NCBI GenBank assembly: GCA_028820635.1
Contig: JAPPIG010000118.1
Span: 124,001 to 188,000, forward strand
From: Candidatus Poribacteria bacterium
Lineage (GTDB): Bacteria > Poribacteria > WGA-4E > WGA-3G
Reading direction: 5' to 3'
DNA: 64,000 nt
Positions 60,010-62,117 of this stretch are shown here, one piece after another. A program made the translations under genes and the position numbers. Every line of letters starts with the position of its first letter. Within the stretch, counting starts at the first letter, position 1. The notes under the pieces are model-generated. The model was not told the DNA's origin, made no database searches, and saw nothing but the letters and a program-made list of their open reading frames with translations.

Positions 60010-60279
60010 ATGCCGCGCACCGATTATACCTCCGAAGTTATTGCTGTCCGCGGTAAAGAGATTTATCAGCAGCAAATTCGGAATAAGGTTGAACCAAAAC
60101 ACAAAGGCAAATTCTTATCCGTTGACATTGAAACGGGGGACTATGAAATTGATACTGACGATTTGTCTCCCACGATGCGTCTACTTGATAAACGACCTGA
60201 TGCTGTCGTTTTCAGTTTACGGATAGGGTTCCAAGCTGCCCATCGTATTGGCTTTAAGGTTTCAGTCCCGACACAATGA
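60010..60279 (+). CDS. Unknown small protein paired with aspartyl protease
   Basis: An 89-residue soluble protein (RGKEIYQQQIRNKVEPKHKG and DYEIDTDDLSPTMRLLDKRP). It has no family name that I recognise, but a small gene of this style precedes retropepsin-like genes in many cyanobacterial and Poribacteria-like genomes, and here they overlap by four bases. AAGGAG lies before the ATG. The pair may act like toxin-antitoxin or as a regulatory couple, which remains open. Confidence 0.72.
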   Translation: MPRTDYTSEVIAVRGKEIYQQQIRNKVEPKHKGKFLSVDIETGDYEIDTDDLSPTMRLLDKRPDAVVFSLRIGFQAAHRIGFKVSVPTQ

Positions 60280-60644
60280 TTATTGGAAAAGTTACAACTA
60301 ACCTGGAAGCCATCATTGAATTGGAAGTTGGCAACTTAAATCAATGGGTGAAAATTGAGAGTGTTATTGACACAGGGTTTTCAGGTTATTTGGCTCTACC
60401 AAGCGATTTAATCAACCGTCTCAAACTTCCACAAATTGATAACCAAGAGGTAATGCTCGGCGATGGAACTGTGGCGGTTTTGGAGAGGTATCTCGTGAAG
60501 ATAATATGGTCTGGTGAAGAACGCAGCATATCCGCGTTGCGATCAGACGGTGGACCATTAGCAGGAATGTCCCTACTTTATGGAAGTCGCGCGGTATTAG
60601 ATGTCGTGGAAGATGGCAGCGTAAGGATTGATGCTCTGCTGTAA
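60276..60644 (+). CDS. Retropepsin-like (clan AA) aspartic protease
   Basis: A 122-residue single-domain aspartic protease-like protein. The active-site motif is VIDTGFSGYLALP (D-T-G), about residue 30-42, and the flap and second hydrophobic strand are seen in IIWSGEERSISALRSDGGPL and AGMSLLYGSRAVLDV. Clan AA enzymes are dimeric, as in retroviral proteases. It has no signal, so it is cytoplasmic. ATGA overlap with the preceding gene couples translation. The substrate is unknown. Confidence 0.88.
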   Translation: MIIGKVTTNLEAIIELEVGNLNQWVKIESVIDTGFSGYLALPSDLINRLKLPQIDNQEVMLGDGTVAVLERYLVKIIWSGEERSISALRSDGGPLAGMSLLYGSRAVLDVVEDGSVRIDALL

Positions 60645-60675: not shown

Positions 60676-61044
60676 GTGCAGCAAACTATTGTTTGGATTG
60701 TAGTAATAGGTGTTATCCTTCTGGTAGGAATAGGGATGATTTTCGCCTTGCGTGCACCACGCACTGTTGCCAAAATATATCCTGCAGATAAAGGACCAAA
60801 CTATATTGATGTTTCCGAGTATCCACAGAAGATGCAAGAACTTTACGAGTTATTTACTCGGAAATGCAGCCGATGCCATACCGTTGCGCGACCGATTAAT
60901 TCCACCTTTACACCGGAAGAATGGCGAAAATATGTGCATAAGATGCGGCAAAAGCCAGGTTCCGGACTCACCTTCAAAACCGCTGAACAGATAATTGAAT
61001 TCCTAATTTACGATGCGCAACATCGGGAGAAAAGTACGCCATGA
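60676..61044 (+). CDS. Membrane-anchored small cytochrome c-like protein
   Basis: A 122-residue protein with an N-terminal membrane anchor (about 4-25) and one CxxCH heme-binding motif, C64-S-R-C67-H68 (RKCSRCHTV). The distal Met may be in KMRQKP, near residue 95 (TPEEWRKYVHKMRQKPGSG). The start is GTG: an in-frame stop lies two codons upstream, so no longer version is possible. Its stop codon overlaps the start of the TlpA-like gene, so the two are probably part of one electron-transfer or cytochrome-maturation function. It resembles the short c-type cytochromes that carry electrons outside the cytoplasmic membrane. Confidence 0.8.
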   Translation: MQQTIVWIVVIGVILLVGIGMIFALRAPRTVAKIYPADKGPNYIDVSEYPQKMQELYELFTRKCSRCHTVARPINSTFTPEEWRKYVHKMRQKPGSGLTFKTAEQIIEFLIYDAQHREKSTP

Positions 61045-62117
61045 TGAAACTTATATTTACGACTTGTGTAATGCTATCTTTTGCGATAGGATTGCAGGCA
61101 TCACCTATCAAAAAACTTCAAATTTCAATTGATAGCCAACCCATCACATTTACCTCAACACCTATATTCAAAAATGGTGCGTGGTTAGTGCCGTTAGAGT
61201 CTTTCTGCAAACAGTTAGGATTAAAGGTTGAAACGCCAACTGGCGGAGATATGGCGGTTATCTGCGGTGGTAGTGAAGAATCGGAGTTGTGTGTACCACT
61301 ACAATTTGGCAAAGATGCATTCAACATTGACAACGTTACTTACGCTAAACTGGAAAGCATCACTGGACCGTTCGGTTTTGAAATCCACAAAGCATCGGAA
61401 ACCGAATTAGAGGTTATCCGCTCGGAACAACTTGCCCCTAAATTTACGCTACCCGACCTTGACGATACGCCAAGACATTTACAAGATTTTCGCGGTAAGA
61501 AAACGCTTCTCTATATTTGGGGTTCATGGTGAGCATGCCGTGGACAACTGCCGGGTTGGCAGAAATTTTACGCGAAACACCGTGATAAACTAAATGTTGT
61601 GTCCATTGCAATAGATGCGCAAGGTGCATCTGTGGTGAAACCGTGGCACAATAAAGCTAATGCCGAATTTGTCACACTCGTTGATGCACAAAATATATTG
61701 GGCAACAGTTATAATCTCAAAGCGATTCCCTACGGTGTTATGATTGACGAGGCAGGACGACTGGTCAAATCACCTTTTAGCATAAACGTTGCCAAAAAAG
61801 AAACAATTGCGATGCTTGAAAAGTGGTTATCTGATACCACCTATAACGCAACCCTTCTTCGTAATTTAAAACCGCTGAACAAATCGCAAAATCCAAAGGC
61901 TATTGAGGCGAATGCACGCTTTCAACTTGGACTTACCTTGTTAGAGATAGGGAAAAAGACGGAAGCAATGAAAGAATGGCGAAAGGCTTTGGAATTGGAT
62001 CCTAAAAATTGGATTATCCACAAACAGATATGGGCAGTTGAACATCCCAACAAATTTTATGATGGCAATGTGGATTATGGGTGGCAAAAGGCACAGTTAG
62101 AAGCAGAAAAAAGATAA
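61041..62117 (+). CDS. TlpA-like redoxin with in-frame TGA at the CxxC site (selenoprotein or pseudogene)
   Basis: One continuous frame of 358 codons interrupted only by TGA at codon 164. It has a signal peptide, a copper-amine-oxidase-like N-terminal fold (PITFTSTPIFKNGAWLVPLE), a TlpA/thioredoxin domain (FTLPDLDDTPRHLQDFRGKK), then WGSW-[TGA]-ACRGQLPGWQKFYAK, where the family has W-C-x-x-C-R, and a C-terminal TPR-like region (ARFQLGLTLLEIGKKTEAMK). TGA stands at the first Cys position, and one residue of the C-x-x-C spacing is also missing. A hairpin with a GG-starting loop lies 20 bases after the TGA, as expected for a bacterial SECIS. Alternatively a 3-base deletion from TGC-CCA-GCA made the stop. 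Coupled to the cytochrome gene by a 4-base overlap. Confidence 0.7.
61548..61562 (+). promoter_or_regulatory. SECIS-like hairpin after the in-frame TGA
   Basis: CTGCC-GGGTT-GGCAG folds into a perfect 5-base stem with a 5-base loop starting GG. The loop begins 20 bases after TGA (61530-61532), within the range commonly described for bacterial SECIS elements (apical loop with an early G, about 16-37 bases after UGA). The sequence also encodes LPGWQ, so it may be coincidental coding constraint. Confidence 0.4.

What the first reader, a model, noticed from the sequence alone, without database searches (positions are those of the whole stretch)
61041..62117. In-frame TGA exactly at the redox site of a TlpA-like protein, with SECIS-like hairpin
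Seen: the reading frame is intact over 358 codons except TGA at codon 164, which stands where the family has the first Cys of W-C-x-x-C; the next residues are A-C-R-G. A hairpin CTGCC-GGGTT-GGCAG begins 16 bases after the TGA with a GG-starting loop. Known: bacterial selenocysteine sites need such a hairpin at about this distance. Against: the usual C-x-x-C has two residues between, here only one, which a three-base deletion (TGC-CCA to TG-A) would explain together with the stop. Inference: either a selenoprotein, or a very recently inactivated gene.
Basis: partly seen in the sequence, partly recalled or inferred. Interest (0 to 1): 0.8.

Follow-up and report, generated by a model that had tools for sequence, protein, structure and literature searches.

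The report
Poribacterial ResA-like selenoprotein with UxC motif
The apparent stop codon in this bacterial gene is almost certainly read as the rare amino acid selenocysteine, giving a redox protein that belongs to a little-studied but already catalogued kind of selenoprotein.

Summary
The genome (kin: Candidatus Poribacteria) carries selA, selB, selD and a tRNA-Sec gene beside selB. The UGA at codon 164 stands in all 56 loci read without regard to motif, in all 59 of 84 phylum genomes with a match, and in 51 of 59 matches from a second phylum; the other 8 are ordinary CxxC proteins. Cys always follows one residue later in those read, so the spacing is the family's signature, not a deletion. 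dN/dS after the UGA is 0.04-0.09. The hairpin is complete in 57 genes; its closing pair is C-G in 54 and U-A in 3, through coupled synonymous changes arising two or three times. The kind is known: 'UGC-containing' Prx-like/TlpA selenoproteins (2008-2026 papers) and NCBIfam NF041054. This protein scores 144 bits against that model's cut-off of 300 and sits in a sister clade. Probable function, inferred only: an exported thiol-disulfide or peroxide reductase using a Sec164-Cys166 selenenylsulfide.

The parts
61041..62117 (+). Selenoprotein gene: signal-peptide-like start, N-terminal domain, ResA/TlpA-like thioredoxin domain, one TPR-like repeat, conserved C-terminal KQIWA..FY.G..D..WQ block
   Evidence: signal peptide judged by eye
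61530..61532 (+). UGA read as selenocysteine 164
   Evidence: 56 of 56 loci; 59 of 59 matching phylum genomes; 51 of 59 matches in a second phylum, the other 8 being CxxC proteins
61536..61538 (+). Cys166, partner of Sec164 in the UxC motif
   Evidence: 56 of 56 loci
61548..61562 (+). Bacterial SECIS-like hairpin CTGCC-GGGTT-GGCAG
   Evidence: 5 of 5 pairs in 55 of 55 distinct stretches from 57 genes; closing pair C-G in 54 genes, U-A in 3
61107..61421 (+). N-terminal domain, Cu_amine_oxidN1-like (PF07833)
   Evidence: 25.2 bits alone against cut-off 24.2; 26 of 28 members match at E <= 0.01; under the cut-off in the whole protein (20.2 bits); Foldseek best hit E. coli amine oxidase, weak, E 0.076
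61263..61265 (+). Invariant Cys75 of the N-domain
   Evidence: 57 of 57
61290..61292 (+). Invariant Cys84 of the N-domain
   Evidence: 57 of 57
61428..61772 (+). Thioredoxin-fold (AhpC-TSA/Redoxin) domain
   Evidence: PF00578 E 7.6e-15, PF08534 E 1.3e-13; ResA structures TM-score about 0.85 by target length
61908..62009 (+). TPR-like repeat
   Evidence: PF07719 25.6 bits, under its cut-off of 27; helices in the model
60676..61044 (+). Neighbour: small protein with a CSRCH haem motif and hydrophobic start (mono-haem cytochrome c-like), overlapping the selenoprotein start by 4 bases
   Evidence: Pfam cytochrome hits under their cut-offs; found upstream in 39 of 42 loci, a CxxCH frame in 47 of 57; none just upstream in 31 of 31 second-phylum loci

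Best explanation
The gene encodes a full-length exported selenoprotein. SelB with Sec-tRNA, guided by the hairpin 15 nt downstream, decodes UGA 164 as selenocysteine. The product has a Cu-amine-oxidase-N1-like domain with an invariant Cys pair, a ResA/TlpA-type thioredoxin domain whose active site is U-x-C instead of C-x-x-C, and a TPR-like tail. Shown by comparison: UGA conservation, selection past it, hairpin conservation with compensating changes, Sec machinery, thioredoxin fold by profile and predicted structure. Inferred: export, Sec164 as the attacking selenolate, a selenenylsulfide with Cys166, and reduction of disulfides or peroxides outside the cytoplasm. Electrons may come from DsbD, with C75-C84 as a relay or merely a structural disulfide. 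It belongs to the UxC clade that includes NCBIfam's 'ResA-like WAxxUGC' family, as a separate subfamily found in Poribacteria and one record labelled Armatimonadia.
For: selA, tRNA-Sec 78.1 bits against gathering 47 34 nt from selB, 348.7 bits against 242.25, selD 370.1 bits, itself with an in-frame TGA in CAGUAS. UGA in 56 of 56 loci, in 59 of 59 matching genomes of 84 in the phylum, in 51 of 59 second-phylum matches, the rest CxxC proteins. dN/dS downstream 0.04-0.09 in 11 of 13 chosen relatives (2 saturated), upstream 0.14-0.31 in 13. Leu170/Gln174 codons coupled in 57 of 57 (54 CTG/CAG, 3 TTG/CAA; about 18% expected from codon usage); 160 other Leu/Gln column pairs average 15%, maximum 69%, the top two of these also involving column 170. 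The three TTG/CAA rows need three changes on the tree, two forced by starred branches. The five lowest of 305 windows of synonymous diversity start at codons 165-169. ResA-like fold. DsbD present. UxC proteins fall on one side of a 100/99 branch against 14 CxxC/UxxC proteins.
Against: No protein or read data. Covariation rests on one of five stem pairs, since Leu-Pro-Gly-Trp-Gln codons fix most of the rest; the counts of changed pairs (79 of 500 shuffles as high) and of pair types (500 of 500) are not above shuffles, and a version slid by -3 has more double-changed cells (8 against 3), though pairing (100% against at most 85.5%) and covariation score exceed all slid versions. The lower stem is not supported and the window's folding energy is ordinary. 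3 of 54 gene-bearing genomes checked lack a SelB hit (G003, G010, G048; 73-81% complete). 25 of 84 phylum genomes have no match. One copy has a second stop (G035, TAA) and one is split (G006). Function is inferred: the cytochrome-like neighbour is not kept in distant kin, and ResB was not found.
Confidence: 0.93

Rival explanations
1. Pseudogene: a recent deletion or nonsense mutation inactivated a CxxC TlpA-like gene.
For: Spacing is one residue short of the usual CxxC.
Against: The same UGA and spacing stand in 56 of 56 loci and in 51 second-phylum genes; dN/dS after the UGA is 0.04-0.09.
Confidence: 0.01
2. UGA is suppressed or reassigned generally (for example to Trp) or read through without Sec.
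For: The downstream frame is intact.
Against: Dedicated Sec machinery; the UGA stands at the redox position, where Trp would make no redox pair; the hairpin is kept at synonymous sites. Stop-codon use of the whole genome was not tallied.
Confidence: 0.02
3. UGA is a real stop: a truncated 163-residue protein plus a reinitiated C-terminal protein.
For: A GTG-started frame exists at 61599-62117.
Against: Conserved WGSWUxCRxQLPGWQ flanks the UGA and lies upstream of that GTG; the split would cut the thioredoxin domain in two.
Confidence: 0.03
4. Selenoprotein, but a dedicated reductase of the apocytochrome encoded just upstream (ResA-like cytochrome c maturation).
For: Overlapping CSRCH protein in 39 of 42 loci; ResA fold.
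Against: No CxxCH frame just upstream in 31 of 31 second-phylum loci or in 10 of 57 of the first set, which include the most distant relatives; ResB not found in the genome.
Confidence: 0.15

Closest known systems
NCBIfam NF041054, ResA-like WAxxUGC motif-containing protein
   Same: Best family hit of the window protein (E 6.3e-42); matched by 36 of 36 members scanned. Second-phylum proteins, 5 of 9 of which pass its cut-off, share the U-x-C site and hairpin, an N-domain Cys pair in 23 of 31 and one side of the tree
   Different: 144.1 bits against a cut-off of 300; WGSWUAC instead of WAxxUGC; different C-terminal block
'Prx-like (UGC-containing)' of Zhang and Gladyshev 2008 (PMC2398784, passages seen), 'UGC-containing TlpA disulfide reductase family' in PMC13188914 (passages seen), 'UGC-containing Prx-like' in PMC9312934 (passages seen); one Prx-like UXC sequence already in the 2005 Sargasso table (PMC1088965, passages seen)
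   Same: pfam00578/cd02966 domain, one-residue U-x-C motif, predicted selenoprotein
   Different: The 2008 table gives 855 Cys homologues; no CxC one was seen here. The representative sequences could not be fetched, so whether they include this subfamily is untested
ResA / TlpA / StoA thiol-disulfide oxidoreductases
   Same: Thioredoxin fold of this group
   Different: CxxC, no Sec; here UxC
UxxC TlpA-like selenoprotein frames (L099, L147-L149)
   Same: UGA at the first redox position of a ResA-like domain
   Different: Two residues between U and C; L099, L147 and L149, which were in the tree, fall with CxxC proteins

Membership tests
Bacterial selenoprotein gene | selA, selB, selC and selD in the genome | tested here: met
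Bacterial selenoprotein gene | In-frame UGA at a conserved redox site with selection continuing after it | tested here: met
Bacterial selenoprotein gene | SECIS-like hairpin just downstream, conserved as RNA | tested here: met
   on one informative pair; lower stem not supported
Bacterial selenoprotein gene | Selenocysteine shown chemically | not testable with these tools
   -
NCBIfam NF041054 (WAxxUGC_long) | Score at or above the curated cut-off of 300 bits | tested here: not met
   144.1 bits
NCBIfam NF041054 (WAxxUGC_long) | Motif W-A-x-x-U-G-C | tested here: not met
   window has W-G-S-W-U-A-C; 47 of 57 genes have G between U and C
UxC clade of ResA-like selenoproteins | Groups with NF041054-type proteins apart from CxxC/UxxC proteins | tested here: met
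   100/99 support, midpoint root, long branches flagged by the program; 5 of 9 second-phylum proteins scanned pass the NF041054 cut-off
Published UGC-containing Prx-like/TlpA family | Similarity to its published members | not testable with these tools
   accessions named could not be fetched
ResA/TlpA (CxxC) | CxxC active site | tested here: not met
   UxC
ResA/TlpA (CxxC) | Thioredoxin fold of ResA type | tested here: met

The most novel reading that the evidence does not exclude
A Sec-obligate redox family spread over at least two phyla: its one-residue U-x-C site was never met with Cys here, suggesting a reaction or a strained selenenylsulfide that Cys cannot replace, with a conserved N-domain Cys pair as built-in electron relay. 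Against it: the 2008 survey counts 855 Cys homologues for the UGC kind, whose motifs I could not see.
Probability: 0.3. Interest if true: 0.6.

Novelty: new member of a known kind. Interest (0 to 1): 0.38.

Why it matters
A standard gene finder would end this protein at the UGA, so a conserved redox protein present in 59 of 84 phylum genomes may be widely mis-annotated (public annotations were not looked at). [quoted passage not shown] a large clade seen only as UxC is an exception worth testing. It also fits a report that SelA and SelB co-occur in most sponge-symbiont bins but are missing in most related references (PMC5649159, passage).

Tried and rejected
Pseudogene by deletion: rejected, since spacing and UGA are shared by all members read. 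Dedicated cytochrome maturation factor: kept as a rival only, because the neighbour is lineage-specific and ResB was not found. An nDsbD-like N-domain (idea recalled): not supported; Foldseek gave only weak amine-oxidase hits, E 0.076, and no DsbD among the 50 rows shown, and a PDB profile search found nothing at E <= 1. Lower SECIS stem: pairs form in 41-57 of 57 but show no excess over shuffles. Literature: Poribacteria + selenoprotein 0 papers; selenocysteine + 'UxC motif' 0; selenoprotein + UxC 5; four selenoprotein-family terms, at least three of them, 11; selenoprotein + UGC-containing 3; Poribacteria + selenocysteine 2, neither describing this protein in the passages seen; ResA terms 3, listing only; nDsbD terms 0; CXC terms 5, listing only. 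PMC5029168: passages only. The library holds open-licence papers only.

Full report
What is there. The frame 61041-62117 has 358 codons and one in-frame stop, TGA 164 at 61530-61532, in the context W-G-S-W-*-A-C-R-G-Q-L-P-G-W-Q. The hairpin CTGCC-GGGTT-GGCAG is at 61548-61562. The parts are: a signal-like start (by eye), a Cu_amine_oxidN1-like domain (25.2 bits against a cut-off of 24.2 when scanned alone; 20.2 in the whole protein), an AhpC-TSA/Redoxin thioredoxin domain, and a TPR under its cut-off. The AlphaFold2 model (mean pLDDT 83.9) matches thioredoxin-fold proteins of the ResA group best in the PDB.

The genome can make selenoproteins. It has selA, selB at 348.7 bits with tRNA-Sec at 78.1 bits 34 nt from it, on the same contig as the window, and selD, itself a Sec protein with C-A-G-U. 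SelB (E <= 1e-60) is found in 76 of 88 genomes searched. Of the 59 phylum genomes with our gene, 54 were among those 88; 51 of the 54 have SelB, and the other three are 73-81% complete.

The UGA is old. The search for related loci gave 43 loci, 42 from Candidatus Poribacteria and one, on a 3-kb contig, labelled Armatimonadia (a binning error there is possible, and that row groups with Poribacteria). Of the loci held then, 56 cover the site by tblastn; 56 of 56 have the stop and a Cys two residues on (the window's own copy and duplicate contigs included). The later working set of 57 distinct genes, the window's included, was picked by a pattern demanding the stop and the Cys, so it tests other features only. 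A profile search of the phylum as held (84 genomes) matched 59 at E <= 1e-30, all with a TGA; one copy has a further TAA (G035), and the one row without a stop is the second half of a split gene in G006. In a second, unnamed phylum, 95 genomes gave 59 matches at E <= 1e-25 in 50 genomes: 51 carry one TGA, and all 51 read W-U-G-C. The other 8 are CxxC proteins scoring under 100 bits. With 13 further Cys-type matches read from other searches, 21 of 21 are CxxC. Matches below the thresholds, and rows cut from the lists, were not read. So no CxC member was seen, within those limits.

The protein is selected after the UGA. Against 13 relatives chosen from the set, dN/dS is 0.04-0.09 downstream in 11 (two saturated) and 0.14-0.31 upstream in 13.

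The hairpin is kept as RNA. The stem lies over Leu-Pro-Gly-Trp-Gln codons, so protein conservation alone keeps most of it. The free test is the first base of the Leu codon against the last base of the Gln codon: 54 CTG/CAG, 3 TTG/CAA and no mismatch in 57, where codon usage predicts about 18% compatible. Of 161 Leu/Gln column pairs this is the only one at 100%; the next is 69% (also with column 170) and the rest average 15%. The three TTG/CAA genes need three changes on the tree, two of them forced by well-supported branches. The five lowest of 305 windows of synonymous diversity start at codons 165-169, at 0.62-0.68 of expectation; the next, at 156, has 0.69. On 55 distinct stretches all 275 cells pair, with three double-changed cells against 0.2 in shuffles; but the numbers of changed pairs and of pair types do not exceed shuffles, and a version slid by -3 has eight double-changed cells with 85.5% pairing. 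In the second phylum 50 of 50 stems checked are complete, all CTG/CAG. There is no support for a lower stem, and the folding energy of the window stretch is unremarkable.

Placement. NCBIfam NF041054, 'ResA-like WAxxUGC motif-containing protein', is the best hit of the window protein and of four relatives scanned with it and matches 36 of 36 members, but the window protein scores 144.1 of the 300 bits required. Of nine second-phylum proteins scanned, five pass the cut-off. In a tree of 16 UxC proteins of the first set, 31 of the second phylum and 14 CxxC/UxxC relatives, all UxC proteins lie on one side of a 100/99 branch; the first set alone has 86/66 (midpoint root, long branches flagged). 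The literature already lists one Prx-like UXC sequence in 2005 and 'Prx-like (UGC-containing)' with 46 GOS sequences and 855 Cys homologues in 2008, renamed TlpA-like by 2026. Hence a new subfamily of a known kind.

How it may work (inference). Sec164 and Cys166 should cycle between selenolate/thiol and a selenenylsulfide closed by one residue. Four Cys-type columns are invariant in the 57 genes: C75, C84, U164 and C166 (the last two by choice of the set). C75 and C84 end and begin neighbouring strands in the model, and a similar pair occurs in 23 of 31 second-phylum genes, so they are either a structural disulfide or a relay. DsbD is present as a possible electron source. The overlapping cytochrome-like gene suggests a link to haem proteins in the Poribacteria close to the window, but it is absent upstream elsewhere.

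Noticed in passing
L018:1450-2523 (G000:C112): The genome's selD is itself a Sec protein (CAGUAS), a second selenoprotein gene of the same genome.
   Followed up: partly
L099, L140, L147, L148, L149: TlpA-like frames with UGA at the first redox position but two residues to Cys (UPSC, UAGC, UGTC, UGIC, UPTC), so a UxxC Sec form also seems to exist, L140 in a genome of the window's order.
   Followed up: no
L105:4107-5178 (G006:C1), same record as L056: The selenoprotein gene lies in two overlapping frames in this genome, a frameshift or assembly error near residue 221.
   Followed up: no
L173, L175, L176, L180, L181, L183, L184, L146: 8 of 31 second-phylum UGC proteins lack the N-domain Cys pair by my pattern.
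   Followed up: partly
window 60010-60644: Two small genes without Pfam hits at E <= 0.01 sit between transketolase and the cytochrome-like gene; found in only 10 and 8 of 42 relatives' loci.
   Followed up: no
G033:C50: A second SelB match (472-residue frame, model positions 1-269) lies about 2.5 kb from the full one in this relative.
   Followed up: no
G035:C369: This relative's copy shows a TAA besides the TGA, so one copy may be decaying or mis-sequenced.
   Followed up: no
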